A DNA stretch of 46,847 nt from Streptacidiphilus neutrinimicus (lineage in GTDB: Bacteria > Actinomycetota > Actinomycetes > Streptomycetales > Streptomycetaceae). Shown here one piece after another: positions 22,258 through 37,527 of this stretch. The position numbers and the translations under genes were made by a program. Location of the stretch: NCBI RefSeq assembly GCF_000787815.1, contig NZ_BBPO01000011.1, positions 1,982 to 48,828 of the forward strand, read 5' to 3'. The number at the start of each line of letters is the position of its first letter. Positions within the stretch are counted from its first letter, which is position 1. The notes under the pieces were generated by a model. The model was given only the letters and a program-made list of their open reading frames with translations. It was not told the origin of the DNA and searched no databases.

Positions 22258-23750
22258 GAGGCCACGACCGGCGCTCCGAAGCAGCCTGTCCCTGCCTTGC
22301 CGCACGCGATCTGCGCTACACCCCCGTCCGGGTCGTGGAACTGGAGCTGGACCGGCCGCAGGAGCTGCGCGCGCCGGGCGGCCTGGGTCCCGTCGTCCCG
22401 AGCGGACGCGTGTCGGCGCTGGTGCGACTGCACGGACACCCGCTCGGGCTGGTCCAGGCCGACGGCGCAGCCGGCGATCCGGCCGGGCTCCGCCGGGCGC
22501 TGGTCGCTGCCGCTTACTGTGAACTGCCCATCCCGGAACAGCGAAGCCCCGAACGGCACGGACCCGAACAGCGCCGTACCGGGGAGCGACGCCGTCAGCA
22601 GCGCCGCCGTGAGCCGTGGGGGCCCGACCCGGCCGCGCCGACGTCCCGATCCGGGGCGACCGTGAGCGTCGTCGTGGCCACCCACAACCGGCCGCAGTCG
22701 CTGCAACGCTGCCTCGACTCGCTGCTGCGCACCCGCTACCCCGGCCTGGAGGTGCTGGTCGTCGACAACGCGCCCGCCACCGCCGAGGCGCGGGAACTGG
22801 TCCTGACGCGGTATCCGCCGCAGGTGCGCTACCTGCGCGAGCCCGTGGCAGGCCTGGCCCGCGCGCACAACCGCGGCCTGGCCGCCGCCCACGGCGCCGT
22901 GGTGGCGTTCACCGACGACGACACCATGGTCGACCCGCGCTGGCCCAGCGCCCTGGCCGACGCCTTCGCGACGGACCGTTCGGTCGGCTGCGTCACCGGG
23001 CTGATCCTGCCCGCCGAGCTGGAGACGCCCGCCCAGGCCGCGCTGGAGGCGCACGGCGGCTACGCCAAGGGCTTCGCCCCGCGCCGCTGGTCGCTGTGGG
23101 AGCCGCCGCGGGGCGAGCCCCTCTTCCCGTTCGCCAGCGGTCGGTTCGGCTCCGGCGCGAACATGGCGTTCCGGGCCTCCCTGCTGCGCCGCCTCGGCGG
23201 CTTCGATCCGGCGACCGGCACCGGCACCCCGGCGCGCGGCGGCGACGACCTGCTCGCCTTCTTCCGGGTGCTGACCTCGGGCGCGTCCCTGGTCTACCAG
23301 CCGGACGCGATCGTCTGGCACCACCACCGCCGCACCCTCGACGCCGTCCCCGCGCAGGCGTTCGGCTACGGGGTCGGCTTCGGCGCGTATCTCGCGGCAG
23401 CGGTGCGGCACCAACCGGCGGCGCTGCCCGCCCTGTTGAGAGTCCTTCCGCGCGGCGTGGGCGTGGCCCTGCGGGGTACGGGCGGACGCGACGCGCCCCG
23501 GTCGCCGCTCGCCGGCGCGAGCGCGGCCGAGCTGGCCCGGCTCCAACTGCGCGGGCTCGCCTACGGCCCCATCGGCTACCTGCGCAGCGCCCTCCAGGAC
23601 AGGTACGGCGCGGGGCGCGGCAGCGGGCCGCGCCGGGGACGCGGCCTGGGACGCGGCCTGGGACGCAGGCTCGGACGCGGCGAGGGCCGGGGCCGGGGGC
23701 TCCCGACGACGAGGACGGTGAGACCGGGTGCGGCCGGCCCACGGCGCTGA
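22254..23750 (+). CDS. GT2 glycosyltransferase with N-terminal accessory domain
   Basis: 498 residues, starting within the preceding stop (ATGA overlap, GAGGGCGGA upstream). An N-terminal domain of about 80 residues (PVRVVELELDRPQEL, ALVRLHGHPLGLVQADG) precedes an Arg/Gln-rich linker. The GT-A domain starts near residue 138: TVSVVVATHNRPQSLQRCLDSLL, LEVLVVDNAP, LARAHNRGLAAAHGAVVAFTDDDTMVDPRW, GSGANMAFRASLLRRLGGFD, GGDDLLAFFRVLTSG. Asp residues of TDDD bind the metal and sugar nucleotide. The C-terminal 45 residues are Arg/Gly-rich and encoded by a 12-bp repeat. Acceptor unknown. Confidence 0.88.
   Translation: MRGHDRRSEAACPCLAARDLRYTPVRVVELELDRPQELRAPGGLGPVVPSGRVSALVRLHGHPLGLVQADGAAGDPAGLRRALVAAAYCELPIPEQRSPERHGPEQRRTGERRRQQRRREPWGPDPAAPTSRSGATVSVVVATHNRPQSLQRCLDSLLRTRYPGLEVLVVDNAPATAEARELVLTRYPPQVRYLREPVAGLARAHNRGLAAAHGAVVAFTDDDTMVDPRWPSALADAFATDRSVGCVTGLILPAELETPAQAALEAHGGYAKGFAPRRWSLWEPPRGEPLFPFASGRFGSGANMAFRASLLRRLGGFDPATGTGTPARGGDDLLAFFRVLTSGASLVYQPDAIVWHHHRRTLDAVPAQAFGYGVGFGAYLAAAVRHQPAALPALLRVLPRGVGVALRGTGGRDAPRSPLAGASAAELARLQLRGLAYGPIGYLRSALQDRYGAGRGSGPRRGRGLGRGLGRRLGRGEGRGRGLPTTRTVRPGAAGPRR
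23637..23684. repeat. 12-bp tandem repeat encoding an Arg/Gly-rich tail
   Basis: Four 12-bp units beginning GGACGC (23637-23648, 23649-23660, 23661-23672, 23673-23684; the first two identical) encode GRGL-like tetrapeptides near the C-terminus of the second glycosyltransferase. Confidence 0.65.
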
Positions 23751-24816
23751 CCCCGGCGCCGCACCCACGCTCTCGGTGGTCGTCTGCTGCTACACCACCG
23801 ACCGGTGGGACGACGTGCGCGCGGCCGTCGCCTCCGTGGCGGCCCAACGGCCGCCCGTGCTGGAGACCCTGGTGGTGGTGGACCACTGTCCCGCCCTGGA
23901 GCGGCTGGTGGAGCGGCTCGCGGACGGGACGCGGGTACGGGTCGTGGCGAACGCGGAACGCCGCGGCCTCTCCGGCGCACGCAACACCGGCGTGGCGGCG
24001 GCCCGCGGCGAGGTGGTGGCGTTCCTTGACGACGACGCGGCCGCGGAGCCCGACTGGGCGGCCGCGCTCCTCGCGGGCTACGCGCGCCGGGCCGAGGCGG
24101 ACGACCCCGACGTGCTCGGTGTGGGCGGGGCCGTGCTGGCCCGCTGGGAAGGCGGGCGGCCGCGCTGGTTCCCGCCGGAGTTCGACTGGGTCGTCGGCTG
24201 CTCCTACCGGGGCGGACCGGAAACCGCCGCGCCCGTGCGGAACTTCATCGGCGCGAACATGTCCTTCCGCCGGGCGGCCCTCACGGAGGCGGGCGGTTTT
24301 CGCACCGACCTGGGCCGGGTCGGCACCCGGCCGCTGGGCTGCGAGGAGACCGAGCTGTGCCTGCGGCTCACCGCCTCCCGGCAGGACGCGGCACTGCTGC
24401 ACCGGCCGGACGCGGTCGTCCGCCACCACGTGCCGCCGCAACGCGGGACCTGGCGCTACTTCCTGACCCGCTGCTACGGCGAGGGCCTGTCGAAGTCCGC
24501 CGTCGCCGCCCGCACCGGCGCGTCCCGCGCCCTGGCCAGCGAGCGCGCCTACCTGCGCAGCGCCGTCCCGCACGCCGTCGCCGCCGCACTGCTGCCCGGC
24601 CCGCGCTGGTCGCCGGGCCGCGCCCTGGCCCTGGGCGCGGGCGTGTCCGCGACGGTCCTCGGCTACGCCGCCGGAACGCTGGACCGGCTGAGGTCCTCGC
24701 GGCCGGACGCCGCCGCCACCGGCGCCCGTCCCGGTCGGCCGCTGCGTGCTCTCGCGACCTCGGCCCTGCTGTCCGCGCGTCCTGCCCGGCGTCGGGAGCG
24801 AGGCGGTGGGAGATGA
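23728..24816 (+). CDS. GT2 glycosyltransferase
   Basis: 362 residues from a GTG that lies 23 nt inside the previous gene. GT-A motifs: LSVVVCCYTTDRWDDVRAAVASV, LETLVVVDHCPALERLVERL, RGLSGARNTGVAAARGEVVAFLDDDAAAEPDW (nucleotide-sugar DDD), FIGANMSFRRAALTEAGGFRTDLG, GCEETELCLRL, and a basic C-terminal region with a weakly hydrophobic segment (ALALGAGVSATVLGYAAGTL). Together with the two preceding enzymes it would provide three successive sugar additions to one glycan (inference). Confidence 0.88.
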   Translation: MRPAHGADPGAAPTLSVVVCCYTTDRWDDVRAAVASVAAQRPPVLETLVVVDHCPALERLVERLADGTRVRVVANAERRGLSGARNTGVAAARGEVVAFLDDDAAAEPDWAAALLAGYARRAEADDPDVLGVGGAVLARWEGGRPRWFPPEFDWVVGCSYRGGPETAAPVRNFIGANMSFRRAALTEAGGFRTDLGRVGTRPLGCEETELCLRLTASRQDAALLHRPDAVVRHHVPPQRGTWRYFLTRCYGEGLSKSAVAARTGASRALASERAYLRSAVPHAVAAALLPGPRWSPGRALALGAGVSATVLGYAAGTLDRLRSSRPDAAATGARPGRPLRALATSALLSARPARRRERGGGR

Positions 24817-25613
24817 CCGCGGTGCCGGTGCTCGTCTACCACTCCGTCAGCGACTCGCCGTCGGAGTGGATCGCGCCGTTCACCGTCTCCCCCCGCGCCT
24901 TCACCGAGCAGCTGGACCGGATCACGGACGCGGGACTGACCGTGGTCTCGCTGCGCCGCCTGGTCTCCGCGATCCGGGGCGGCCCGGCGCTGCCCGCGCG
25001 TGCCGCCGTGCTGACCTTCGACGACGGCTTCGCGGACTTCTACTGGACGGTCGCCCCCCAGCTCCAGGCACGGGAGCTGCCCGCCACGCTGTTCGTCACG
25101 ACCGGCGCCGTCCACCCGCCCGGCGGCGCGCCGTCGGGCAGCCTGCTGGGCCCGGCCGACATGCTGAACTGGCGCCAGATCGCGGGCCTGGACGCCGTCG
25201 GGATCGAGATCGGCGGGCACTCGGTCACCCACCCGCAGATGGACACCCTCACCAGCCGCGCGCTCTGCGTGGAGCTGGAGCTGTGCAAGCGGGAGCTGGA
25301 GGAGGCCCTCGGCCACTCCGTCAGCAGCTTCGCCTACCCCCACGGCTACTCGAGCCCGGCGGTGCGACGCAAGGTGCTCCGCACCGGCTGGGACTGCGCG
25401 TGCGGGGTGGCCAACGCGTTCAGCTCGACCTCCGACGACACGCTGCGGCTGGCTCGCCTCACTGTCCGAGCGGACACCTCTCCCGCGACGTTCCAGGGCT
25501 GGCTGGAGGGCCGGGGCGCACCCGTCGCCCCCTTCCCCGACCGCTGGTCCACCCTCGGCTGGCGTGCCTACCGCCGTCTGCGCGCCCGCCTCGGGCTCCC
25601 GCTGCCGCGCTGA
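24813..25613 (+). CDS. Polysaccharide deacetylase (NodB / carbohydrate esterase 4)
   Basis: 266 residues, ATG overlapping the previous stop (ATGA). NodB motifs: VLVYHSVSD, VLTFDDGFADFYW (Asp70, Asp71), IGGHSVTHPQM (His136 and His140 as zinc ligands) and SFAYPHGYSSPAVRRKV. No signal peptide or anchor is visible. CE4 enzymes remove acetyl groups from N-acetylglucosamine-containing polymers; here the substrate may be the cytoplasmic or lipid-linked glycan made by the coupled glycosyltransferases. Last gene of the plus-strand operon. Confidence 0.9.
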   Translation: MTAVPVLVYHSVSDSPSEWIAPFTVSPRAFTEQLDRITDAGLTVVSLRRLVSAIRGGPALPARAAVLTFDDGFADFYWTVAPQLQARELPATLFVTTGAVHPPGGAPSGSLLGPADMLNWRQIAGLDAVGIEIGGHSVTHPQMDTLTSRALCVELELCKRELEEALGHSVSSFAYPHGYSSPAVRRKVLRTGWDCACGVANAFSSTSDDTLRLARLTVRADTSPATFQGWLEGRGAPVAPFPDRWSTLGWRAYRRLRARLGLPLPR

Positions 25614-26924: not shown

Positions 26925-27824
26925 CTAGTGCTGCCACACCCGCACCCACTGCACCTGCATCTGGGCCTGGTTGACGCCGGACGGGGGCGCGTAGGGGTAC
27001 CCGACAGCCAGGTTGAGGATCATTTCCATAGGAAGGCTGGGAATCTCCGCGGGGTTGGATATCTTCCAGCGGGCGATGCCGTCGACGTACCAGGTAACCG
27101 AGTTCGGCTCCCAGTCCACCGCGAAGACGTGGAAACCGGCCGGGAAGTTGACCGGGCCGAACCAGCTCTGGCGCTGCTTGGGCGTGCCGTCAGGAAGCTG
27201 CCAGTGGAGCGTGTTCTGCACCAATTGGGTGGTGCCGCTGAACTCGGCGATGTCGATCTCCTGGGGGACATCGTGCTGGGCCGGGAGCAGCCAGAAGGCG
27301 GGGAACATGCCCTTCTGCGAAGGGATGCGGATCGCTGCGGCGAAGTAGCCGTGCAGGAAGGTCTGCCGGGGCTGCCCGTCCCAGTTGTCGCGCCCGGTGG
27401 TGACCATGCCGGAGGCCCACGGATAGGTCTTGCCATCACTGCCCTTCGTCGGCGTACGGGTGGCGTCCAGATGCAGCGTTCCTCCGGAGACGGAGACCTG
27501 ACCGGGGAGGTACCACTCCAGTTCGTGGTTGCCCGCGTTGGTGCAGCCGGAGACGTTCCAGTCGTAGCAGGTGGCCCAACTCGCATTGTCGAGCGAGCCG
27601 CCGCCGAAGTCGTCGGAGAACACAAGATGCCAGGAACCGCCCGCCCCGGCGGCCGGTGCCGGCGTGCTCACAGAGGGATCGGCCGTCCCGGTGGACGGCC
27701 TCCCTGCAGCGGCGGAGCCGGTGCCCGGCGACGTGGCCCCGCACGCCGCACTCACCCAGAGGACGAGCAGGCACGTCGCCATCCGGGTCCATGCCATCGG
27801 ACCGGTCCGCCGTGTCACACGCAT
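26925..27824 (-). CDS. Secreted/lipoprotein GH16 beta-glucanase-like enzyme
   Basis: 299 residues from the ATG at 27824, chosen for GAGGAGG 8 nt upstream and an immediate signal peptide. A lipobox-like VSAAC (Cys28) suggests lipid anchoring. After a Thr/Ser/Ala/Pro linker the GH16 jelly-roll runs from about residue 64 (WHLVFSDDFGGGSLDNASWATCYDW) to the end. The catalytic motif is EIDIAEF (Glu189, Asp191, Glu194), with SGMVTTGRDNWDG, GMFPAFWLLPAQ, FHVFAVDWEPNSVTWYVDG and MEMILNLAVGY. GH16 enzymes cut beta-1,3/1,4-glucans or galactans. Encoded directly after the membrane protein (13-bp gap), it may trim or release the glycan built by this cluster, as EPS-cluster GH16 enzymes do. Confidence 0.92.
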   Translation of the reverse strand: MRVTRRTGPMAWTRMATCLLVLWVSAACGATSPGTGSAAAGRPSTGTADPSVSTPAPAAGAGGSWHLVFSDDFGGGSLDNASWATCYDWNVSGCTNAGNHELEWYLPGQVSVSGGTLHLDATRTPTKGSDGKTYPWASGMVTTGRDNWDGQPRQTFLHGYFAAAIRIPSQKGMFPAFWLLPAQHDVPQEIDIAEFSGTTQLVQNTLHWQLPDGTPKQRQSWFGPVNFPAGFHVFAVDWEPNSVTWYVDGIARWKISNPAEIPSLPMEMILNLAVGYPYAPPSGVNQAQMQVQWVRVWQH

Positions 27825-27837
27825 CCCGGCCACCTCC

Positions 27838-29628
27838 TCACGCCGCGAAGCGGTACACCGACGCGTCGGCATTTTGGTACACCAGTGTGAATCCAGGGGT
27901 GGTCGCCAGGGCATCCGCCAGTCGGGCGACCGTGTCGCCGGGCAGCTCGCCGGTCAACCGGAGCTCCCAGGTCTGCGCACGGCTGAGGATCAGGTACACG
28001 GGAGTACCCGGCTTCACGAAACCGACGCTCTCGCGCAGACCCGCCACCGGGTCGGCGACCAGCAACTCCTGGGTGACGCCCGGGGCCGAGACCAGGCGTA
28101 CCTCGGGGTGCTCCTCGTAACGCTCGTCGATGCCGGGCACGGACCCGGTCACGCCGACGATCACCGCCCCCGGCGGCGCCTCCTGGATCATCCGTTGCGT
28201 GGCGGCGACTTCACCGGGGGTGTAGTAGTTCATGGCCTCCTTGCCGTAGTAGCTGAAGAACAGCCCACCCAGCATGGCGAGCAGCATCGCGGGAAGCGCG
28301 GCTTTGCGCAGCACTTGCCACCGCGCAGGGGCGGGTTCCGGCGGGACCTTGAGGCGCGGTCTCAACAGCACGCCGATGAGAAACGCCGCGTAAGGAAGCG
28401 AGAACAGATAGGCGCGGAAGAGCATCTCACCGCCGTAGGCGTTCGCGGCGAGGAGCGGCAGGGGCGAGAAGAACAGCCAGACGACCGGCGTGCGGCGGGT
28501 CCAGGGCCTGAGCACCAGGCAGGCGACGCCCAGCAGGAACACCCCGGCGGACAGACCGCGGTCCACCCAGCCGACCAGCACCTGTTCGGGAGCGGCGGTG
28601 CCCAGGCTGCGGAATCCGGAGGCCACGTTCCCGTCAGGGCTGGCCAGCGAGGAGACGAACGATCCGAGGTTCGCCGAGAGATAGGGGCGCGCCACGGTCG
28701 CGCCCCAGGCAGCCGTGAGCGCCATGGAGCCGAGGAGCGGCGGAAGCACCACGCGCCGGTTGCGCCGTGGCACCGCCAGCAGCGCGAGGCTGCTGATCAC
28801 CATCAGCGGGGTGAGCTGGTGCGAGCAGACGATCGCAGCGTCGAGCAGCAGCACGACGGCCAGCGACCACCCCCAACGTCTGCCGCGGGCGGGACGGTCG
28901 GGCGGGTAGCCGGGGCCGGGCTCACCCGGCGCTCTCGCCAGGGCGGGGAGCCTGCGCAGCACGAGCGCCATCAGCCAGGCGTAACAGATGAACGCGAACG
29001 CCTGAGGCGCGAAGTAGTCCTGACCGACCCAGGAGGTGGAGTAGTAGACCCAGACCGCCGCCCAGACTACCCGTCTGTCCGTCGTGATCGAGCGGTACAG
29101 CCACAGCAGCGGCACCAGCACCAGGGCGTTGACGAACGGCGGCGCCCACGCCGCGTAGGAAACCGGGGACGACAGGCCCAGGACCTTGAGCACGCCGACA
29201 TTGAGCAGGAAGAACCCAGGCCACTGGTTGTAGATCTCCAGATCCCCGGCGTGCGGCACCAACCCGTTGTGCCGCAGCATCGCGTCGACGATGGCGACGT
29301 GCTTCCAGGCCCAGGCGTAGCGCAGGGTCGGGTAGAGCAGCGACGGCGTCGCGTGGATGAACGCGATGAGCGCGAGCACGTAGCCGGCCAGCCAGCCCTG
29401 CCCGAGGCGGGGATCGCGGAGCGTGAAGACGAAGCCGACGGTCAGCAGGACGACGGCGACCCAGTACAGCGGCGTCAGGACCTGGAGCAGGCCGAGGTCG
29501 CCCATGCCGGTCAGGTCGACCTGACGCAGCGACACCAGCCACAGCACCAGCGCGGTGGGCAGCGGCGCGCAGGGCGCGTACCGCCGCAGCCCCACGCCCA
29601 CCGCGCTCACGCTCACCGCCCCGGCCAT
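27838..29628 (-). CDS. Polytopic membrane protein, GT-C glycosyltransferase-like
   Basis: 596 residues from the ATG at 29628 (GGAGG upstream), overlapping the end of the phosphotransferase gene by 16 nt. About 11-13 transmembrane segments occupy residues 10-450, e.g. VLTPLYWVAVVLLTVGFVFTL, FFLLNVGVLKVLGLSSPV, AAWAPPFVNALVLVPLLWLY, LAVVLLLDAAIVCSHQLTPLMVISSLALL and AYLFSLPYAAFLIGVLL. A soluble C-terminal domain of about 130 residues follows (MIQEAPPGAVIVGVTGSVPG, LILSRAQTWELRLTGELPG, FTLVYQNADASVYRFA). The layout resembles lipid-linked-sugar (GT-C/ArnT-like) transferases of actinobacterial EPS clusters. A conserved catalytic Asp in the first loop cannot be fixed by eye. Confidence 0.8.
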   Translation of the reverse strand: MAGAVSVSAVGVGLRRYAPCAPLPTALVLWLVSLRQVDLTGMGDLGLLQVLTPLYWVAVVLLTVGFVFTLRDPRLGQGWLAGYVLALIAFIHATPSLLYPTLRYAWAWKHVAIVDAMLRHNGLVPHAGDLEIYNQWPGFFLLNVGVLKVLGLSSPVSYAAWAPPFVNALVLVPLLWLYRSITTDRRVVWAAVWVYYSTSWVGQDYFAPQAFAFICYAWLMALVLRRLPALARAPGEPGPGYPPDRPARGRRWGWSLAVVLLLDAAIVCSHQLTPLMVISSLALLAVPRRNRRVVLPPLLGSMALTAAWGATVARPYLSANLGSFVSSLASPDGNVASGFRSLGTAAPEQVLVGWVDRGLSAGVFLLGVACLVLRPWTRRTPVVWLFFSPLPLLAANAYGGEMLFRAYLFSLPYAAFLIGVLLRPRLKVPPEPAPARWQVLRKAALPAMLLAMLGGLFFSYYGKEAMNYYTPGEVAATQRMIQEAPPGAVIVGVTGSVPGIDERYEEHPEVRLVSAPGVTQELLVADPVAGLRESVGFVKPGTPVYLILSRAQTWELRLTGELPGDTVARLADALATTPGFTLVYQNADASVYRFAA

Positions 29629-30683
29629 CGCACCGCCTCCGCGAGCACCGGCGCGACCGCGCGGCGGTACCAGATCCGGCTGCGCCCGTAGCGCGGCGAC
29701 TTCGAGACGTTGGCGGCGACGTGCCAGAGCCAGGCCAGCAGCATCGACTCCGGATCGGCGCCGCCGTCCGAGCCCGGCGGCCGGGCCGAGGCCAGAAGAG
29801 TTGCGTCGTCGGGGGTGAGCGCGCCTGCGCGCAGGATGGACGCGACGAGCGGGCCGAGGGCGGCCCCGGTCCGCAGGCAGCGGAGCATCAGCACGAAGGT
29901 GCAGGCGTCGACGGCCACCGGGCCGTCCTCGCGGCCCTCTCCCCAGTCGATGACGCCGGTCACGCGGCTCGACCGCTCGTCCAGCAGCAGGTTCCCCGGG
30001 TGGTAGTCGCCGTGGGCCCAGCCGACGGCGAGCGTGCGCCCGTCCAGGTAGGCGGCGAGCCGCTCGCCCACGGCGGTCAGCCCGGCGGCGTTCGCGCCGG
30101 CGCGGCACCACGGGACGCGGTCGCGCACGACGGCCAGCGGCTCGGTCACCCACGCCTTGGTCCGCCCCGCGCTGGGCTCGGGCCGCACGGAGGCGCGGCC
30201 GAAGACGGCGAGCGTGGACAGGGCCAGGCGCGCGACGCGGTCGACGGTGTCGGGGTCGGCATCGGACAGGACGGCTTCGGCGTCCCGGCCGGGCAGCAGG
30301 CTCTGGGTGATCAGCGGCAGCGGCGCGTCCAGACGACGGTCGAGCGGAACGGGGATCAGGTGCCGCCACGCGCCCAGCCGCTCGTCGTGCCGGAGGCGCG
30401 TCAGCACCTCCCATTCCCGGGCGAGCGCGGCGGCGGCAGGGGCGCTGTGGGCGTGCTTCAGCACGACGCCGCCCCGGCCCGGCTGGTCGAGCTGCAGGAC
30501 GAGCACGTCGGCGAGGCCGTTGCCGCGACGCCGGGCGGCGGGCGGATCGTCCGGCCGGTACGCCCGGGCGAGTCGGCGCGTGAGGCGTCGTTCGGCCGGT
30601 CCCCGCAGCACCGCCGGGCGGCGGACGGGCAGCCACCCGCGCAGCTGATCCCCGAGCGTCACCATCTGCCCTTCGTCGCTCAT
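29613..30683 (-). CDS. Aminoglycoside-phosphotransferase-fold kinase
   Basis: 356 residues, starting in the ATGA overlap with the upstream PRTase/HAD gene. The kinase motifs are intact: VGWAHGDYHPGNLLLDE (Brenner motif, about 219-235) and VTGVIDWGEGREDGPVAVDACTF (metal-binding Asp, about 243). The N-lobe has VVLKHAHSAPAAAALAREWEVLTRLR, where the Lys and a following Glu fit ATP binding. APH-fold enzymes phosphorylate small molecules, sugars or choline-like groups as well as antibiotics. The overlap with genes for a HAD phosphatase fusion and a GT-C-like protein suggests phosphorylation of a sugar or lipid precursor rather than resistance (inference). Confidence 0.85.
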   Translation of the reverse strand: MSDEGQMVTLGDQLRGWLPVRRPAVLRGPAERRLTRRLARAYRPDDPPAARRRGNGLADVLVLQLDQPGRGGVVLKHAHSAPAAAALAREWEVLTRLRHDERLGAWRHLIPVPLDRRLDAPLPLITQSLLPGRDAEAVLSDADPDTVDRVARLALSTLAVFGRASVRPEPSAGRTKAWVTEPLAVVRDRVPWCRAGANAAGLTAVGERLAAYLDGRTLAVGWAHGDYHPGNLLLDERSSRVTGVIDWGEGREDGPVAVDACTFVLMLRCLRTGAALGPLVASILRAGALTPDDATLLASARPPGSDGGADPESMLLAWLWHVAANVSKSPRYGRSRIWYRRAVAPVLAEAVRWPGR

Positions 30684-33622
30684 CGGGCCTCGCCCCCGTC
30701 CCTCGCGTGCGTCCCGCGCCGGTGCGCCGAGGGGCCGCGCGCCGTCGGGCGATGCCGGTCCGGGCCGTGCCGGTCCAAGCCGTGCCAGTCCAGACCGTGC
30801 GTCGACAGGCCGTGCGCCGCCAGGCCGTGCGTCTGCAGTTCGTGCGCGGCCGTCAGGTCCGCGTTCTCCAGCGCCAGCCGGGCGAGGCGCGTCAGGGCTC
30901 CGCGACGGCCCGCCTCGGGGAGCGCGAGGACCGCGAGCACGGCTCGCGTCTCGTGCGGCAGCGAGGGCGGACGGCAGACGGGACAGCGTCCGGGGCGGTG
31001 GCCGAGGAGCGCGGCGACCGCGTCGGCCAGGCCGGACTGGTAGGCGCCGGAGGTGACGTGGATGCCGGTCTCGGCCAACTTCCGCGCGTGCGCGGGCACC
31101 GCCGCGTTGCGCGCCCAGCGCAGCAGCGGCAGGTCGGCGGGGCCGTCGCCGACGGCCAGCACGGGCGGCTCCGCCGGCTCGCCCATCAACGCGAGCAGCG
31201 CTCGCACGCCCTTCGCCTTGTCCGCTCCGCGCGGGACGAAGTCGGTCTGCGCGTCGCCGGGTACGGCGTCGAAAAGACGGCCGAACCGAGGCTCGCTCAG
31301 CAGCTCGGCGGTCTCCTGCTCGGGCAGGCCGGTGCGCCGCCCGTCCGGGTGGCGGATCGCGGCGCGCACGCACCAGTGCGACAGCGGGTCGGTCTCGTGG
31401 CCGGGCCGCGAGGCGAGCAGGGAGCCCAGCCCGCCGTCACCCCGGCCGCGCCGGGCGTCGTCGAGAGCGACACGGACGCGGCCACTGCCCGCGTCGACGC
31501 AGGTGGCTCCGTACTCCCCCACGCCGCCCGCCAGGCCGTAGGCGGCGCAGCGGTCGCGTACCTCCGTGAGCGAGCGGCCGGTGGCCAGCAGCGGCCGGTA
31601 GCCGTGGGCGCGCAGGGCGCGCAACGCGGTGACCCCGAGCGGTGAGGCGGCCGGAAAGCCGAGGACGTCGGTCTCCAGCACGCCGTCGACGTCGAGCACG
31701 CACCAGCCGCGCGGCTCGGACGCGGGCGGCCGCTCGTCGAGGTCGGCCAGCAGGGCGTCGGCGAGGAACCGCTGCGCGGCTCTGGCCTGCGCGCGTCGTG
31801 CGCGGGCCCGCAGCGCCGGGCCGTCCTGCCCGTCCGCGCCGGGCGTGAGCCGAACGGTGTTGCGGGCCTGGACCAGCTGGAACAGGAACCAGCGCGCCGG
31901 GTCGACGCGACGGCCGGTCAGCTCGGCGTAGTGGCGCAGCAGTTCCCGTTCGGCCTCGTCGTCCGGCGGCCCGTGGGCGACCGCTCCGGCCAGGTCGTAG
32001 ACGGCGTCGTAGCAGGCCAGGTCGAGGCTGGCGAAGCCGCCCTCGGCCCAGTCCAGCTTGCGGCGGGCTCCGGCGGGGTCGGTCGCCCAGTGCTCGGGAG
32101 CGGTGCGGCCGTCGACGAGGCAGGGCCGGGGCGCCGACGCGAGCAGGCACCGTGTCAGCGGCTGGACGAGCGCGGGCCGCAGCAGCACCGCGGCCCGGCC
32201 GAGCGCGGGCGCCAGAGTGCGGGCGGCGGACTCCCAGACGGGGTCGCGTCCGCCGAGCCGTCCGCTGCGGTCCTCGTGCAGCGGCAGCCGGCGCTCGCGC
32301 TCGGCGAGGTAGACGGCGACCTCGCGCGGTGTGACGGGCTGCCGCGCACCACCGGACGGGTCGCCCGGGTCGGACCGACCACCGTTCGGACGGTCGCTGA
32401 GCAGCACGCCGTCGGCGAAGCCGCGGACGCGGGGGACGAAGCCGTCGAGGGCGGCGGCCGTGGCGGGGGCGAGGCGTCCGAAGCGGCCGACGCCCGTCCA
32501 CTCGGCGCACAGGGCGAGCTCCTCGCGCGCGCCGTCGGGGTGTGCGACGACCGCGGTGAGGGGCACGGACAGGTGTCCGCCGCGCGCGACGGGCCCGGGC
32601 TCGGCCGCCCGAACGCCGAGCACCCGGACGTCCCCCAGCAGCCGCGGAACCAGCCCCGCGAGCGCGCGCGGCGCGAGCAGGGCCGGCACGTGCCAGGCGG
32701 ATCCGGGCAGCGTCACGCAGTCGAGGCGGGCCAGCCGGTCGGGGACGAGGGCCGGGTCGCCGAAGCAGGCGAAGACGGGGACGATCGCGGGCGCGGGGAC
32801 TCCCGCGCGCTCCAGCGCGGCCGCCACGTCGGCGAGTGCGCCGCCGGTGACCGGCGGGTCGTCCACCAGCAGCACGCGCGCGGCGGACGCCGCTCCGCGC
32901 GGCGGCGGCACACCGGGACGGGTCGTGGCCACGGCCACGCGGCGGTACCCGAGGCCCCGCAGGGCCGCGGCCAGCAACGGCGCGAGGTAGCTGCCGGAGG
33001 TCCGCACGCCGAGCACCAGCAGCGGCGGCTCACGGGCCGGGTAGACCAGGGCGAAGCGGCGGGCCAGTTCGGCCATGTCCTCCGGGTGCTGGTCGAAACT
33101 GCGGAAGCACGCCGGCGGCCGGAGCAGCTCCCGTCCGACCAGCTGCGCGACGCGTCCGGGTCCGGCCAGCACGCGCCCGGCGGTGACGGGTCCGGGGTCG
33201 TGCCCCAGGGCCAGGCCGGCGAGCGTCACCGTCACGCGCGTCGCCTCGGCCGCCCAGGCGCGCAGCGCCCGGGTCGGCGGGGCGGCGCGGTACCCCGCGC
33301 CGACGGCGTCGAGCGCGCGGGAGGCGAGGCGCAGCGCGGGACGGACCCCGGGACCGTCGCCGCTGTGACGGGCCAGGTGGACGAGCAGGCGGCGCGGCGG
33401 CCAGGTGACGCCGTCGATGCGGTCCTCGACGATCTGCGAGGCCCCCGCCGCCCACAGGAACGCGTCCAGCCACTCGTCCGCCGCGAGCGCCGAGCACAGC
33501 CCGGCCAGCGCCTCGTCCAGGGTCGCGAACGGGTCGGGCACCGGACCGCCCTCCTGCCCGCGCCCGGCCCGGGCCCCGGCCGCGCCCGTCGGGCTGGCCT
33601 CGCTCCTGGTCGGGCTCATCAT
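30680..33622 (-). CDS. PRTase / kinase-like / HAD phosphatase fusion protein
   Basis: 980 residues. A helical N-terminus is followed by a phosphoribosyltransferase-like domain (about 170-340; FRSFDQHPEDMAELARRFALVYP, and the PRPP loop VLLVDDPPVTGGALADVAAALERAG near 247-271). A second region (about 430-620) ends in RRKLDWAEGGFASLDLACYD (near 520-545), resembling the C-lobe of atypical APH-like kinases. The third is a Cof-type HAD phosphatase (about 636-860) with all four motifs: CVLDVDGVLETD, LLATGRSL, KAKG and VGDGPADLPLL. A CPVC knuckle follows, then a His-rich repeat tail (931-960). Start 33622 or 33619 (two ATGs). It probably carries out linked phosphoryl or ribosyl steps on a nucleotide or sugar; the pathway is unknown to me. 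Confidence 0.82.
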   Translation of the reverse strand: MMSPTRSEASPTGAAGARAGRGQEGGPVPDPFATLDEALAGLCSALAADEWLDAFLWAAGASQIVEDRIDGVTWPPRRLLVHLARHSGDGPGVRPALRLASRALDAVGAGYRAAPPTRALRAWAAEATRVTVTLAGLALGHDPGPVTAGRVLAGPGRVAQLVGRELLRPPACFRSFDQHPEDMAELARRFALVYPAREPPLLVLGVRTSGSYLAPLLAAALRGLGYRRVAVATTRPGVPPPRGAASAARVLLVDDPPVTGGALADVAAALERAGVPAPAIVPVFACFGDPALVPDRLARLDCVTLPGSAWHVPALLAPRALAGLVPRLLGDVRVLGVRAAEPGPVARGGHLSVPLTAVVAHPDGAREELALCAEWTGVGRFGRLAPATAAALDGFVPRVRGFADGVLLSDRPNGGRSDPGDPSGGARQPVTPREVAVYLAERERRLPLHEDRSGRLGGRDPVWESAARTLAPALGRAAVLLRPALVQPLTRCLLASAPRPCLVDGRTAPEHWATDPAGARRKLDWAEGGFASLDLACYDAVYDLAGAVAHGPPDDEAERELLRHYAELTGRRVDPARWFLFQLVQARNTVRLTPGADGQDGPALRARARRAQARAAQRFLADALLADLDERPPASEPRGWCVLDVDGVLETDVLGFPAASPLGVTALRALRAHGYRPLLATGRSLTEVRDRCAAYGLAGGVGEYGATCVDAGSGRVRVALDDARRGRGDGGLGSLLASRPGHETDPLSHWCVRAAIRHPDGRRTGLPEQETAELLSEPRFGRLFDAVPGDAQTDFVPRGADKAKGVRALLALMGEPAEPPVLAVGDGPADLPLLRWARNAAVPAHARKLAETGIHVTSGAYQSGLADAVAALLGHRPGRCPVCRPPSLPHETRAVLAVLALPEAGRRGALTRLARLALENADLTAAHELQTHGLAAHGLSTHGLDWHGLDRHGPDRHRPTARGPSAHRRGTHARDGGEAR
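30743..30832. repeat. 15-bp coding repeat, His-rich pentapeptides
   Basis: Six imperfect 15-bp units encode THGLA, AHGLS, THGLD, WHGLD, RHGPD and RHRPT at the C-terminus of the fusion protein. The HGL core is nearly constant while the outer residues vary. Confidence 0.65.
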
Positions 33623-33719: not shown

Positions 33720-35105
33720 TCACGTCGGCGGCCGGGGCGTCGGGGCGGGCAGCCACCAGTCGCGCCGCCACAGCAGCACCGCCGCGACCAGGCTCTGCCC
33801 GATCAGCCAGGCGGCGCCCGCGCCCGTGATGCCGAGGACCGGGAGCAGCAGCTCCGTCAGTCCGAGCACCAGCAGCGCGAGGCCCGCGAGCACGCCCACC
33901 ACGACGCGCATCCGGCGCCGCGCCCGCGACAGGGCGACCACGGTCGTGTTGAGCAGGTTCGGCAGCGCGGACAGCGTCAGCAGCCACAGTGCCACCAGGC
34001 CGTGCTGGGCGTAGGCGGGGCCGAACAGGCGCAGTGCCCAGGGCGAGACGGCGAGTACCGCCACCACCGCGAGGGCCAGCACCCGGCCCGCGTGTCGCAG
34101 CACCCGCCGGTAGTCCTCCAGCCGTGTGACGTCCCGTGCGGATTCCACGATGAGCGAGTAGCCCATGTTGACGCTGAAGGCATAGAGCGCCAGCGGCACC
34201 AACCAGGCCAGCGCGAAGTACGCGCTGTCGGCGGCGCCGAGCCGGTTGAGCACGATCACGGGCGGCAGGTTGACGGCGGCCAGCCAGCACATCGCGCCCA
34301 CGTAGTCGGCCGCGACGTAGCCGAGCGTGAGCCCGGAGGTGTCCGCGGCCGGCTGCGGCGCAGCGCGTTCGTGACGGGGCAGAGCCCGCGCGAAGACGAA
34401 GAGGTTGGTCAACACAAGCGAGAGCGCGAGACCGACCATCCAGGAGACCAGGATGCCGCTCGCCGTGCCGACTGCGGCGAAGACCGCCAGCAAGCCGATC
34501 TTCTCGACCGAGAACAGCCCGTTCTCCAGCGCCACCCAGTCGGCACGGCGCAGGCCGGTGAGGACGCCGTCCTGGAGGTTGAAGATGGCGTAGCCGCCGG
34601 TCGCGAGGACGAACCAGAGGCCCAGACTCCAGGTGTGGAGGAAGTCCAGCCCGGGTGAGAGGTGCGGGACCAGCGCCACGAACCCTGCGGCGAGCAGCAG
34701 CGTCACCGCGGCGGCGACGAGATAGGCCCGGCCGACCAGCCGTCCGGTGCGCGGACCCGCCGAGGGCACGAAGCGGACCATCGCGTTGGCCAGGTTCAGC
34801 TGGCCCACACCGCCGAGGAACATCATCGCGGAGACCGCGGCGGAGTTCCGGCCGACCTCGTCGGGGGTGTACCAGTGGGCGCCCAGCGCCCAGTAGAGCG
34901 CGCCGAAGAGCGCGGTCAGCGCGGAACTGAGGGTGAGCAGATGGCCGTTGCGCAGCAGGGGGTCGTATCTGGCAGCTGCCGCCACGAGCGCCCTGCTGCG
35001 TGACCGCAGCGAATGCTTCGCGGCGGTCGATGCACTGGCTCCGGTGCTCACCACCGGCGGGCTCCCGTCCTCGGCCCGGATCAGATTCGCCCATTTTATG
35101 CCCAT
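33720..35105 (-). CDS. Polysaccharide flippase (Wzx/MATE-like, MOP superfamily)
   Basis: 461 residues. After a 45-residue basic cytoplasmic N-terminus, about 12 transmembrane helices follow, such as LLTLSSALTALFGALYWALGA, AYLVAAAVTLLLAAGFVALVP, SLGLWFVLATGGYAIFNLQDGVLTGL, IGLLAVFAAVGTASGILVSWMVGLAL and ALAWLVPLALYAFSVNMGYSLI. The helix pattern and short loops (RRADWVALENGLFSVEKI) match polysaccharide biosynthesis transporters. It probably moves the lipid-linked repeat unit across the membrane. The ATG at 35105 has a weak GGTGA. A 97-bp gap separates it from the downstream fusion gene, and I see no clear terminator in it. Confidence 0.88.
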   Translation of the reverse strand: MGIKWANLIRAEDGSPPVVSTGASASTAAKHSLRSRSRALVAAAARYDPLLRNGHLLTLSSALTALFGALYWALGAHWYTPDEVGRNSAAVSAMMFLGGVGQLNLANAMVRFVPSAGPRTGRLVGRAYLVAAAVTLLLAAGFVALVPHLSPGLDFLHTWSLGLWFVLATGGYAIFNLQDGVLTGLRRADWVALENGLFSVEKIGLLAVFAAVGTASGILVSWMVGLALSLVLTNLFVFARALPRHERAAPQPAADTSGLTLGYVAADYVGAMCWLAAVNLPPVIVLNRLGAADSAYFALAWLVPLALYAFSVNMGYSLIVESARDVTRLEDYRRVLRHAGRVLALAVVAVLAVSPWALRLFGPAYAQHGLVALWLLTLSALPNLLNTTVVALSRARRRMRVVVGVLAGLALLVLGLTELLLPVLGITGAGAAWLIGQSLVAAVLLWRRDWWLPAPTPRPPT

Positions 35106-35185: not shown

Positions 35186-36253
35186 CTAGGTTGCGCGGGC
35201 GCCGCGAAGGTTGGCCAGCATGCGCGCTACGGTCGATTCCGCCCTGCTTCGCAGATTCTCAAGGCGGCCGAGGGGCAGGCGTTCCATGCGGCATTCGAGC
35301 ACGGTGCGGGGAACGGCGCCCATCGCTTCCTTGTAGGCCTCGAGCGCGGCGACCCCTCCCGACATGCCCATGCTGTAGAAACGGCAACCATGGTCGCAGG
35401 CATCCTCGATCGCGGTCCGCTGGAGCAGCAAACCGGCTCGCAGGGACGCGAACTTCTTCACGGAGTAACTGCGGAACGAGACGGCGTGATCCCGGTAGAC
35501 GAAGGTCATCAACCCCGCCACCGGCTCGCCGTCGTAACGCGCCAGCCACATGCGACATGCCCCTTCCAGGGACTTCGCAAGGGCCTCGAACATCGGCAGA
35601 GGCTCCCGATGGCGTGCCAGAGCGGCCGCGAGAGGCCAGGGAACACCCGACTTCTGGGCCCGCTCCGCCGACCATCGCATGTAGACGTCGTAGAAGTCCG
35701 GGACCCGCAGACCCGTCAGGTCCCGTTCGATGGTGACACCCGAGCGTTCGGCCTTGCGCACGTTCTTCCGCGTGGAGGCGTGGAACCGCTCACCCCAGAC
35801 ACGGGAAAAGCCTCCGTCCAGATCGAGCACGTGCACGTGGGACCGGATCGCGTCGACGCCGGGCACGAGGCCTTGTTCCCAGCGGTCCGTCACGTCGTGC
35901 ATCACCGAGATCCGCACCCCGGCCGGTCGTCCGCCGAGCAGGTCGGACAGGACCAGCCTCACGTCGGCCGGTTGCGGCCCACCCGTCGCCAGCAGCCCTC
36001 CAGGGCCCATGCGGTGCGGATACGCTGCGTCGAAGGCGATCCCCGGCACAGGACTGCGACGCAGCAAGGGGAGCAGCAGAGAGCGCCCGTCCCCGGTCGT
36101 GTAGAGCCGACTGGCATCCCGGGCACCGGTCAGTTCGATCACGGAATCGAACCAGGCCGGGGTCTGGAAGACCGACGAGGCTGGGTCGCTCGCCAGCAGG
36201 CTGATCCATTCCGACCTGGGCGCCGGGCTTACAACCTGGTGTTTCGTGGGCAC
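35186..36253 (-). CDS. FemAB-like GNAT acyltransferase
   Basis: 355 residues from a GTG at 36253 with GGGAGG 5 nt upstream, preferred over upstream ATGs (36310, 36292) that lack a ribosome site. The fold is the FemAB/BioF2-like double GNAT: VFQTPAWFDSVIEL, SLLLPLLRRSPVPGIAFDAAYPHRMGPGGL, HVHVLDLDGGFSRVWGERFHASTRKNVRKAERSGVTIERD, PDFYDVYMRWSAERAQKSG, MWLARYDGEPVAGLMTFVYRDHAVSFRSYSVKKF and LLQRTAIEDACDHGCRFYSMGMSGGVAALEAYKEAMG. Members transfer aminoacyl or acyl groups to cell-wall or polysaccharide precursors. Divergent from a paralogue at 36385. Confidence 0.85.
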   Translation of the reverse strand: MPTKHQVVSPAPRSEWISLLASDPASSVFQTPAWFDSVIELTGARDASRLYTTGDGRSLLLPLLRRSPVPGIAFDAAYPHRMGPGGLLATGGPQPADVRLVLSDLLGGRPAGVRISVMHDVTDRWEQGLVPGVDAIRSHVHVLDLDGGFSRVWGERFHASTRKNVRKAERSGVTIERDLTGLRVPDFYDVYMRWSAERAQKSGVPWPLAAALARHREPLPMFEALAKSLEGACRMWLARYDGEPVAGLMTFVYRDHAVSFRSYSVKKFASLRAGLLLQRTAIEDACDHGCRFYSMGMSGGVAALEAYKEAMGAVPRTVLECRMERLPLGRLENLRSRAESTVARMLANLRGARAT

Positions 36254-36384
36254 GCAGCCTCCCACAGCAGACAGACAAGCCAGTTTGACCATATGGCATA
36301 AGAGGCACATTCGGCGCTAATCAGACATGATCGTACGGGAGTCACCCGGCTTCCCGGCGGGTTCGACCGGAGAGGAGCGAGGGC

Positions 36385-37527
36385 GTGCCCAGCTTCCACC
36401 TCCACGGCACCCCGTCCTGTGCTGTCGAGGTGACCAGTCCTGCGACCCGGGACGTGTGGTGGGACCTGCTTCGCCGCGACGAGCTGGCTCTGGTCACGCA
36501 GACCCCGACCTGGCTCGACTGCCTCTGCGACGCCTGGCCGTTCGTGGACGCGAGCCGGCTCTACCGATTCTCCGACGGTGGCCACCTGCTGGTGCCGATG
36601 GTGCGGCACCGTGGCCGCCTGCCCGGGCTGTTGGCGGAGGAATCCTGGCCCAGGTGGGGTGTGGGCGGGGCCGTGGGCCTTGACGGCGCTCCGGACGCGG
36701 GCCGTGCGCATCTCGTCCTCGCCGACCTGGCCGCGCGGCCCGCGCTGCGCGTCGCGGTTCGGTTCAACCCCCGCACCACTGCCTCGTTCCGGGTCGACTC
36801 GGCCGGCTCGGCCTCCTCCGCCGATTCGGCCCCCCTGGCCGGGTCGGTCTGGGAGGCGACGGCGTCAGGAGGGTTCGCGACCGTCGAGCGCACCACCTAC
36901 CTGCTGGACCTCTCCCCCGGCTTCGACGCGGTGTGGTCGCGCCGCTTCCACCCGTCCGTGCGCCAGGGCGTGCGCCGCGCCGAGCGCGCCGCGGTCGAGG
37001 TGACGGTGGACCGCACCGGGCGCCTGGTGCCGCTCTTCCAGCGGCTCCACCGGGAGTCGGTGGCCCGGTGGGCCGAGCAGCAGCACGAGCCGCTCACGCT
37101 CGCCCGCTGGCGTCAGCGGCGCGACGAGCCGCCGCGCCTGCTGGAGGCGGTGGCCGAGCGGTTCGGCGAGTCCTGCGCGATCTGGCTGGCGAGCGTCGAG
37201 GGACAGCCCGCCGCCGCGATCGTGGTGCTGCGTCACGGCACCCACGCCAAGTACTGGCGCGGGGCCATGGACCGCAGCGTGGCCGGGCCGGTCCACGCCA
37301 ACCAACTGCTGCACCGGCTCGCCGTCGAGGACGCGTGCGCGGCCGGGTGCCTCGTCTACGACATGGGCGACGCCCGGGCCGGCTCCTCTCTCGCCCGCTT
37401 CAAGGAGAACCTCGGCGCACGCCCGGTCCCCTCCCCCGCCTACTACCGCGAGCGGCTGCCGCTCACGGCCTTCGACCGCCGCGCGCGGGCGGCGGTCAAA
37501 CGGCTCATCGGGTTCAGGGACGCCTGA
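36385..37527 (+). CDS. FemAB-like GNAT acyltransferase (paralogue)
   Basis: 380 residues from a GTG at 36385 preceded by GGAGAGGAGCGAGGG. It shares the architecture of the neighbour: QTPTWLDCLCDAW, LLVPMVRHRGRLPGLL, TYLLDLSPGFDAVWSRRFHPSVRQGVRRAERAAVEVTVDR, WLASVEGQPAAAIVVLRHGTHAKYWRGAMD, LLHRLAVEDACAAGCLVYDMGDARAGSSLARFKENLGARPV. A Ser/Ala-rich insertion (SAGSASSADSAPLAGS) near residues 138-153 is absent from the paralogue. Its 3' end overlaps that of the LLM gene by 14 bp. Probably modifies the glycan or a precursor with an amino-acid or acyl group. Confidence 0.85.
   Translation: MPSFHLHGTPSCAVEVTSPATRDVWWDLLRRDELALVTQTPTWLDCLCDAWPFVDASRLYRFSDGGHLLVPMVRHRGRLPGLLAEESWPRWGVGGAVGLDGAPDAGRAHLVLADLAARPALRVAVRFNPRTTASFRVDSAGSASSADSAPLAGSVWEATASGGFATVERTTYLLDLSPGFDAVWSRRFHPSVRQGVRRAERAAVEVTVDRTGRLVPLFQRLHRESVARWAEQQHEPLTLARWRQRRDEPPRLLEAVAERFGESCAIWLASVEGQPAAAIVVLRHGTHAKYWRGAMDRSVAGPVHANQLLHRLAVEDACAAGCLVYDMGDARAGSSLARFKENLGARPVPSPAYYRERLPLTAFDRRARAAVKRLIGFRDA

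What the first reader, a model, noticed from the sequence alone, without database searches (positions are those of the whole stretch)
30680..33622. Three-domain PRTase / kinase-like / HAD phosphatase fusion embedded in a polysaccharide cluster
Seen: a PRPP-loop-like VDDPPVTGG, a kinase-C-lobe-like LDWAEGGFASLDLACYD and a full set of HAD motifs in one 980-residue frame, with a CPVC knuckle and His-rich tail. It overlaps an APH-fold kinase gene by ATGA, which in turn overlaps a GT-C-like membrane protein. I do not know a described pathway with this combination. Inference: synthesis or recycling of an unusual ribosyl- or phosphate-bearing precursor for the glycan, or a separate nucleoside-derived metabolite.
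Basis: partly seen in the sequence, partly recalled or inferred. Interest (0 to 1): 0.62.

Follow-up and report, generated by a model that had tools for sequence, protein, structure and literature searches.

The report
PRTase–kinase-like–phosphatase fusion in glycan cluster
A soil actinobacterium carries a single protein that joins a ribose-phosphate transferase, a kinase-like part without the usual catalytic residues and a phosphatase, inside genes for a surface sugar chain, and it most likely adds ribose to that chain in two steps, by a route built from different parts than the known ones.

Summary
The 980-residue frame is real (minus strand, 33622–30680): a type I phosphoribosyltransferase (PRTase) core with PPi and PRPP loops, a kinase-like middle without the usual catalytic loop, and an HAD-IIB phosphatase with all motifs. 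The fusion occurs in 9 of 101 sampled family genomes. Seven of nine copies lie among glycan genes; two sit at contig edges whose visible flank shows none. The neighbouring GT-C gene is far more widespread than the fusion, and one relative has flippase and GT-C side by side with no fusion or APH kinase between them. In S. melanogenes, whose locus lacks the APH, flippase and GT-C genes, the fusion has changed catalytic residues in both PRTase and HAD. A truncated paralogue family has lost the PRPP-loop acid pair. Best explanation: PRPP-dependent phosphoribosyl transfer to a cytoplasmic glycan intermediate, then 5'-dephosphorylation. This works like the known gPRT–PRP and Hib CriT–CrpP pairs, but the phosphatase cap differs, and sequence searches linked the PRTase to no glycan enzyme. 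No activity is shown. The genome also encodes a decaprenyl-phosphate phosphoribosyltransferase elsewhere, so the fusion is unlikely to be the lipid-ribose synthase.

The parts
30680..33622 (-). PRTase / kinase-like / HAD fusion gene, 980 aa
33143..33547 (-). N-terminal, mostly helical region of the fusion, residues 26-160
   Evidence: predicted structure
32669..33142 (-). type I PRTase core, residues 161-318 (PPi-like loop 205-210, PRPP loop 253-261)
   Evidence: Pfam Pribosyltran in 6 of 14 members, best 1.3e-6, window copy 0.0063 under the cut-off; topology; PyrR best PDB sequence hit E 0.047
31709..32668 (-). kinase-like middle, residues 319-638, without HxDxxxxN
   Evidence: predicted N-lobe/C-lobe order of strands and helices; kinase rows E 0.06-0.8; motif absence; no Pfam hit
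30983..31708 (-). HAD-IIB (C2-cap) phosphatase domain, residues 639-880, all motifs present
   Evidence: PF08282 in 8 of 8 members, best 4.5e-13; 1wr8 Z 19.2, rmsd 2.9, 220 aligned
30974..30985 (-). CPVC knuckle, residues 880-883
   Evidence: GHxPGxCxxC in 9 of 9 fusions
30683..30823 (-). His-rich tail, residues 934-980, low confidence in the model and not conserved
29613..30683 (-). APH-fold kinase with K, HxDxxxxN and D conserved
   Evidence: PF01636 1.3e-18; 6 of the 8 genes found were aligned
27838..29628 (-). GT-C fold membrane protein
   Evidence: AlphaFold model and PDB comparison
33720..35105 (-). flippase-like membrane protein (start may be 34985)
   Evidence: no family match of its own; 61% identical to the first half of L035:6022-8472, which hits PF01943 at 0.003, under the cut-off; 9 hydrophobic segments
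35186..36310 (-). FemAB/GNAT-like gene
   Evidence: PF13480 1.5e-19
36385..37527 (+). second FemAB/GNAT-like gene
   Evidence: PF13480 4.3e-17
26925..27914 (-). GH16 glycoside hydrolase (start may be 27623)
   Evidence: PF00722 2.5e-21
21424..22257 (+). GT2, relative of AglJ-type polyprenyl-phosphate hexose transferases
   Evidence: NCBIfam AglJ 2.6e-37, below its cut-off
22662..23750 (+). GT2, MftF-like (true start may lie upstream)
   Evidence: NCBIfam MftF 2.8e-31, below its cut-off
23728..24816 (+). GT2, AglG-like
   Evidence: NCBIfam AglG 3.7e-62, below its cut-off
24813..25613 (+). polysaccharide deacetylase
   Evidence: PF01522 3.7e-20

Best explanation
The fusion is a cytoplasmic two-step ribosylation enzyme for a surface glycan. 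The PRTase domain moves a 5-phosphoribosyl group from PRPP onto a lipid-linked glycan intermediate made by the AglJ/AglG-like glycosyltransferases; the HAD domain, in the same chain, removes the 5'-phosphate; the kinase-like middle, lacking catalytic residues, probably binds the acceptor or the other enzymes. The finished unit is flipped by the neighbouring flippase-like protein and used outside by the GT-C protein. The APH kinase, fused to the flippase in two relatives, acts on the same glycan or its carrier. Shown: domains (PRTase and HAD well, kinase-like moderately), conserved motifs, genomic association. Inferred: PRPP as donor, glycan as acceptor, order of steps, role of the middle domain and of APH.
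For: PRPP-loop acid pair DD in 8 of 9 fusions, DE in the ninth. HAD catalytic residues invariant in the 8 fusions other than L004. 7 of 9 copies lie within about 10 kb of glycan genes. In L117 the flippase (85%) and GT-C (82%) are adjacent and both fusion and APH are absent, i.e. in that one locus the two are missing together. In S. melanogenes (L004) tblastn at 1e-5 finds no APH, flippase, GT-C or FemAB gene in the 22.9-kb locus, though the GT2, deacetylase and GH16 genes remain; no APH is found at 1e-15 in G050, which I take to be the same genome because the contig lengths agree. There the fusion has D255E, K802T and D826G: 3 of its 11 changes at 239 otherwise invariant positions hit 7 catalytic sites, P = 0.0023; the 7 sites are standard ones but were listed after I had seen the alignment. 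Flippase and APH are one protein in L035 and L096. A distant PRTase homologue (L048) lies next to a different type of HAD (HAD_2), so the PRTase/HAD pairing occurs with two HAD types. Precedents for PRPP-dependent ribosyl transfer plus HAD dephosphorylation in glycans: PMC11127046, PMC10299916.
Against: No activity or product is known. No known glycan PRT enzyme is named among the PDB sequence hits of the PRTase profiles at E up to 10 (12 entries, 4); I had no such sequence to compare directly. The weak PRTase matches are to base- or PRPP-metabolism enzymes: PyrR, ribose-phosphate diphosphokinase 0.0083 and APRT 0.11; and in the window copy alone a MobA-like NTP transferase model scores as well (0.0061) as Pribosyltran (0.0063), in 1 of 14 members. 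The truncated paralogues sit in the same kind of glycan cluster but lack the acid pair in 11 of 11 copies (one keeps a single acid), so a PRTase domain can persist there without PRPP chemistry. APH occurs in 2 of 12 glycan loci without the fusion, and the fusion without APH in S. melanogenes. L032 and L033 are at contig edges and their visible flank shows no core glycan gene. L048 shows none either. Flippase and GT-C pairs occur without the fusion. dN/dS in S. melanogenes is not raised overall, so decay would be recent; a related GT-C and flippase remain elsewhere in that genome (L123).
Confidence: 0.4

Rival explanations
1. The fusion makes a small ribosylated metabolite (nucleoside-like): PRTase joins PRPP to a base or acid, HAD dephosphorylates, and the product is a glycan substituent or a separate compound.
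For: Type I PRTases classically use nitrogenous acceptors (established knowledge); PyrR is the best PDB sequence hit; the L048 homologue sits beside HAD, methyltransferase-looking, AdoHcyase-like and B12 radical SAM genes and I saw no glycan gene there; FemAB and ATP-grasp genes in these clusters could attach such a product.
Against: 7 of 9 fusion copies are within glycan clusters and none of the 9 is in an L048-like setting in the stretches seen; I saw no acceptor-biosynthesis gene recurring beside the fusion.
Confidence: 0.22
2. Regulator: the PRTase senses PRPP or a nucleotide (as PyrR/PurR do) and the kinase-like and HAD parts control glycan assembly.
For: Weak PyrR similarity (and for L048); kinase-like middle without catalytic loop; acid pair lost in 11 of 11 truncated paralogues that stay in glycan clusters.
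Against: HAD catalytic residues and the acid pair are invariant in the 8 fusions other than L004; catalytic residues are among what changed in S. melanogenes.
Confidence: 0.15
3. The fusion makes polyprenyl-phosphate ribose, the donor for the GT-C enzyme, in a three-component system with flippase and GT-C.
For: Flippase-like and GT-C neighbours match the layout of the published three-component systems; the GT-C model resembles AftA (8if8, Z 17.7, rmsd 6.7, 474 aligned) and ArnT (5f15, Z 16.8, rmsd 5.4, 414 aligned) among others.
Against: The fusion has no UbiA match and no 19-residue segment reaching a mean hydropathy of 1.6; the genome has a decaprenyl-phosphate phosphoribosyltransferase above the NCBIfam cut-off elsewhere (L093, 235 against 207 bits); flippase and GT-C pairs exist without the fusion; the best GT-C matches are oligosaccharyltransferases.
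Confidence: 0.12
4. Kinase/phosphatase phosphate-editing: APH phosphorylates a glycan sugar and the HAD domain trims it; the PRTase part is a binding module only.
For: The 8 sampled genomes with an intact fusion all have APH; its catalytic residues are present in 6 of 6 aligned; truncated PRTase paralogues without the acid pair show that the fold can be retained for something else.
Against: Acid pair conserved in fusions; APH exists without the fusion in 2 of 12 loci.
Confidence: 0.11

Closest known systems
Dual-domain ribofuranosyltransferases gPRT-PRP (Klebsiella O antigens, Thermobacillus composti; Kelly 2022 recalled, and as described in PMC11127046)
   Same: PRT domain plus HAD phosphatase in one chain, in glycan clusters; two-step transfer from PRPP is what I propose here
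   Different: Here a type I PRTase with classical PRPP loop, a C2-cap HAD-IIB instead of a mostly helical cap, and an extra kinase-like domain; no product known
Hib Bcs3 CriT/CrpP (PMC10299916, passages read)
   Same: PRTase-like catalytic core with helical bundles plus HAD in a multi-enzyme polypeptide
   Different: CrpP has a mostly helical cap inserted in the flap; Bcs3 also has a GT-B polymerase; not named among PDB sequence hits at E up to 10
Three-component pentofuranose systems (UbiA-type synthase plus HAD, MATE flippase, GT136 GT-C; PMC11127046)
   Same: Phosphoribosyl plus HAD chemistry encoded beside a flippase and a GT-C
   Different: Fusion is not UbiA-like and shows no hydrophobic segment; a UbiA-type synthase is elsewhere in the genome; the GT-C model is nearest to oligosaccharyltransferases by fold
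Haloarchaeal Agl N-glycosylation pathway (AglJ, AglG, AglB)
   Same: Two glycosyltransferases match the AglJ and AglG models, and the GT-C model matches the AglB/STT3 fold
   Different: Matches are below the NCBIfam cut-offs; GT-C lacks WWDxG in 15 of 15
PyrR and other type I PRTases
   Same: Core fold and PRPP-loop motif
   Different: Kinase-like and HAD domains attached, glycan context
Ter-associated PRTase/HAD/ATP-grasp metabolite operons (recalled)
   Same: PRTase with HAD in one locus
   Different: No PRTase_2, TRSP or PELOTA match in the Pfam scans; these Pfam names are recalled

Membership tests
Type I phosphoribosyltransferase | Core alpha/beta fold with PRPP loop (two acids, then T/S-G) and PPi loop | tested here: met
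   Topology; DDPPxTG or DDPPxSG in 8 of 9 fusions and GVRTSG or GIRTSG in 9 of 9; Pribosyltran in 6 of 14 members, window copy 0.0063, below the Pfam cut-off. Fold match to a solved PRTase not obtained (one search list filled by HADs)
HAD-IIB (Cof-type) phosphatase | DxD, TGR, K, GDxxxD motifs and C2 cap | tested here: met
APH/protein-kinase-like fold as an active kinase (middle domain) | HxDxxxxN catalytic loop | tested here: not met
   Absent in 8 of 8; no profile similarity to the neighbouring APH
APH/protein-kinase-like fold (middle domain) | Kinase fold | tested here: inconclusive
   Predicted order of strands and helices and 5 kinase rows of 50 with E 0.06 or more (residue ranges not given)
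gPRT-PRP / CriT-CrpP ribofuranosyltransferases | HAD with mostly alpha-helical cap inserted in the flap (C1) | tested here: not met
   Cap lies between TGRS and K802 and has strands, nearest structures are HAD-IIB type; description of the CrpP cap, of the PRP cap
gPRT-PRP / CriT-CrpP ribofuranosyltransferases | Shared PRT domain | tested here: inconclusive
   No such entry named among the PDB sequence hits of A3 and A8 at E up to 10; the fold comparison list was filled by HAD matches
gPRT-PRP / CriT-CrpP ribofuranosyltransferases | PRPP-dependent ribosyl transfer to glycan and dephosphorylation | not testable with these tools
   needs biochemistry
Three-component pentofuranose system | UbiA-type polyprenyl-phosphoribose synthase in the locus | tested here: not met
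   None of the 6 UbiA matches in the genome lies on the window contig C174
Three-component pentofuranose system | GT-C protein (GT136) with MATE flippase | tested here: inconclusive
   GT-C fold supported; flippase assignment rests on a weak PF01943 match of a homologue; GT136 and MATE membership not tested
Oligosaccharyltransferase (AglB/STT3/PglB) for the GT-C | WWDxG motif (recalled) | tested here: not met
   0 of 15, though the fold matches: 8age Z 22.9, rmsd 4.8, 452 aligned
Ter-associated PRTase pathway | PRTase_2/TRSP/PELOTA domains | tested here: inconclusive
   No such Pfam match at E up to 1 or 5; the ATP-grasp gene in a sister locus hits ATPgrasp_Ter only at 0.014

The most novel reading that the evidence does not exclude
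A nucleotide-salvage-type (type I) phosphoribosyltransferase was recruited as an O-glycosyltransferase, on a lineage separate from gPRT and CriT: it adds ribofuranose to a cytoplasmic, lipid-linked, Agl-like glycan of an actinobacterium, with a catalytically dead kinase-like domain as acceptor reader and an independently acquired C2-cap HAD as the 5'-phosphatase.
Probability: 0.3. Interest if true: 0.72.

Novelty: new variant of a known kind. Interest (0 to 1): 0.5.

Why it matters
The donor for ribofuranose in bacterial glycans was long debated, and the solutions I read of pair a PRPP-using transferase with an HAD phosphatase. This would be a further, separately built solution, in a narrow group of filamentous actinobacteria and beside an archaeal-like glycan pathway, with natural present/absent strains for testing. 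If wrong, it still defines a fusion family that I found described nowhere in the library listings, with a truncated, acid-less paralogue family in sister glycan clusters.

Tried and rejected
Lipid-ribose synthase as main reading: put second-line because a decaprenyl-phosphate phosphoribosyltransferase lies elsewhere in the genome and the fusion shows no UbiA match or hydrophobic segment. Ter-type operon: no domain match. Homology of the middle domain to the adjacent APH kinase: none found (hhalign probability 0.1); the kinase-like call rests on predicted topology and weak rows. In the viral-protein library, among 50 rows, I count 12 PRTase, UMP-synthase or PRPP-synthetase proteins and 5 kinases, all with E of 0.06 or more and without residue ranges: weak support. 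These limits on candidates mean that rare relatives can have been missed. Plasmids: no match. My first idea that APH is tied to the fusion (8 of 8 with, 0 of 1 with the altered fusion, 0 of 10 without) was corrected, where 2 of 12 loci that I picked have APH without the fusion. Papers: no description of this fusion in the listings. Of papers, only PMC11127046 (abstract, opening, sections 7 and 9, first part of 12) and PMC10299916 (12 passages) were read. Kelly 2022 and the Ter paper are recalled.

Rows dropped: L040 (G070) was left out of all alignments because its genes are broken up there; L029-L031 repeat the genomes of L003-L005 and were left out of the tables; L004, L043, L044, L046 and L048 were left out of the folding alignment A2; A3 holds 14 of the 21 rows of A1 (not L004, L038, L039, L042, L043, L044, L046); A4 and A5 hold the 8 fusions other than L004; A6 holds 6 of the 8 APH genes found; A8 holds 14 rows.

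Full report
The observation. The gene lies on the minus strand from 33622 to 30680 and encodes 980 residues. My simple gene caller picks the frame; eight other full-length copies are 49-84% identical; dN/dS is 0.25-0.40 in the N-terminal, PRTase, kinase-like and HAD blocks between four close relatives. So it is a real, selected gene. It overlaps the APH gene by ATGA, and APH overlaps the GT-C frame by 16 bases.

The domains. An AlphaFold model from 16 sequences has mean pLDDT 78.4 and pTM 0.80. Residues 161-318 show the order helix-strand-helix-strand-strand-helix-strand of a type I PRTase core, with a PPi-type loop (GVRTSG, 205-210) and the PRPP loop (253-261). Pfam Pribosyltran matches 6 of 14 family members, best 1.3e-6; the window copy alone scores 0.0063, under the Pfam cut-off, and there a MobA-like NTP transferase model scores as well (0.0061, 1 of 14 members). 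The best PDB sequence hits of the profile are PyrR proteins, E 0.047. Residues 639-880 are an HAD of the IIB type: PF08282 in 8 of 8 members, nearest structure 1wr8, Z 19.2, rmsd 2.9, 220 residues aligned. The middle, 319-638, has the strand and helix order of a kinase N-lobe and C-lobe, and a search of viral models gave 5 kinase rows of 50 with E 0.06-0.8, without residue ranges; but it has no Pfam match, no profile similarity to the neighbouring APH and no HxDxxxxN in 8 of 8 copies, whereas the APH keeps it in 6 of 6 aligned. I call it kinase-like and non-catalytic, with the fold only moderately supported.

The family. In 101 Streptomycetaceae genomes (own included, at most 8 candidates scored in each) 17 have a match, in 3 of 17 genera: 9 carry the full fusion (window; L003, L004, L005; L032-L036), 7 carry only a truncated form, and one (G065, locus L048) carries a distant relative. 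The PRTase profile finds nothing in 393 other class genomes. A branch with support 100/100 separates the 11 aligned truncated copies from the other 10 rows of the tree (root drawn at midpoint). The acid pair of the PRPP loop is absent in 11 of 11 of these (L043 keeps one acid), while fusions have DD in 8 of 9 and DE in one. Some truncated copies keep a remnant of the kinase-like N-lobe (L037, hhalign probability 88.5), so they look like shortened PRTase-kinase-like proteins. L048 also seems to carry the kinase-like part (probability 19.7 against at most 1.3 for 20 shuffles).

The neighbourhood. Seven of nine fusions lie within about 10 kb of GT2, deacetylase, GH16, flippase or GT-C genes; L032 and L033 sit at contig edges and their visible flank shows none of these. 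The 12 loci with a truncated PRTase all hold a GT2a-type GT2, flippase, deacetylase and GT-C gene. Two of the window's glycosyltransferases resemble AglJ (2.6e-37) and AglG (3.7e-62), both under the model cut-offs. The GT-C model matches oligosaccharyltransferases best (8age Z 22.9, rmsd 4.8, 452 aligned; AglB 3waj Z 21.4, rmsd 4.2, 436 aligned), then among others AftA and ArnT, but lacks WWDxG in 15 of 15. GT-C relatives occur in 46 of 101 family genomes (E up to 1e-15) and 52 of 296 class genomes (1e-12), far beyond the fusion. Of 12 such loci that I picked, none has any of the three fusion domains (tblastn 1e-5), and 8 hold GT2a, GT2b, GT2c, deacetylase and GT-C. In L117 the flippase and GT-C are neighbours with no fusion and no APH between them; that genome (G037) has a truncated PRTase elsewhere.

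Coupling. APH is found in 8 of 8 genomes with an intact fusion, in 0 of 1 with the altered fusion and in 0 of 10 without (threshold 1e-15); outside that set, 2 of 12 glycan loci have APH without the fusion. In L035 and L096 APH is fused to the flippase. In S. melanogenes (L004) tblastn at 1e-5 finds no flippase, APH, GT-C or FemAB gene in the 22.9-kb locus, while GT2, deacetylase and GH16 genes are there, and the fusion carries D255E, K802T and D826G. These are 3 of its 11 changes at 239 positions that are invariant in the other eight; 7 of the 239 are the catalytic acids and lysine (P 0.0023). Those seven are standard sites of the two enzyme types, but I listed them after seeing the alignment, so the figure is indicative. 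None of the changes at otherwise invariant positions in the other eight copies falls on them. Overall dN/dS is not raised in that species, so the loss would be recent. I read it as PRTase and HAD chemistry losing its use once the partners were gone; a related GT-C and flippase remain elsewhere in that genome (L123), so this is not proof.

How it probably works. A PRTase and an HAD phosphatase joined in one chain recall the published two-step ribosylation of glycans: PRPP donates ribose-5-phosphate and an HAD removes the phosphate (PMC11127046; PMC10299916). The distant relative L048 lies beside an HAD of another type, as if the step required a phosphatase. The setting, glycosyltransferases before and flippase and GT-C after, suggests a cytoplasmic lipid-linked acceptor. 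Making lipid-linked ribose itself is less likely, because the genome encodes a decaprenyl-phosphate phosphoribosyltransferase at another locus (L093, above cut-off) and the fusion shows no UbiA match or hydrophobic segment. The donor, acceptor and product are inferred; none is shown.

Membership and novelty. It is a type I PRTase (by motifs, predicted topology and weak family matches) and an HAD-IIB by tests made here. It does not meet the HAD-cap feature of the gPRT-PRP or CriT-CrpP enzymes, and the PRTase relation is undecided. It works, I think, like them. I rate it a new variant of a known kind.

Noticed in passing
L047:9325-10305 (own genome, G000:C184) and 10 further aligned truncated copies: Truncated PRTase paralogues in glycan clusters, all without the acid pair of the PRPP loop; function open.
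   Followed up: partly
L048:6151-13833 (G065): Distant PRTase-kinase-like protein beside a HAD_2, a methyltransferase-looking, an AdoHcyase-like and a B12 radical SAM gene; looks like a small-molecule cluster.
   Followed up: partly
L035:6022-8472 and L096:2410-4824: Flippase and APH kinase fused in one protein.
   Followed up: partly
window 21424-24816; L037:2478-5369: AglJ-like and AglG-like glycosyltransferases in an actinobacterial cluster; in several genomes the AglG-like one is fused to the GT-C.
   Followed up: partly
window 19105-21135 and counterparts in L118, L121, L122, L124-L126: A gene next to the glycan cluster in many of these loci; the letters GGDEF were seen by eye in L003, no domain search made.
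   Followed up: no
L033, L034, L119: A phosphoesterase-looking gene (by eye) near the fusion or GT-C.
   Followed up: no
L093 (G000:C60): Decaprenyl-phosphate phosphoribosyltransferase next to a DprE1-like oxidase frame (the latter by eye).
   Followed up: partly
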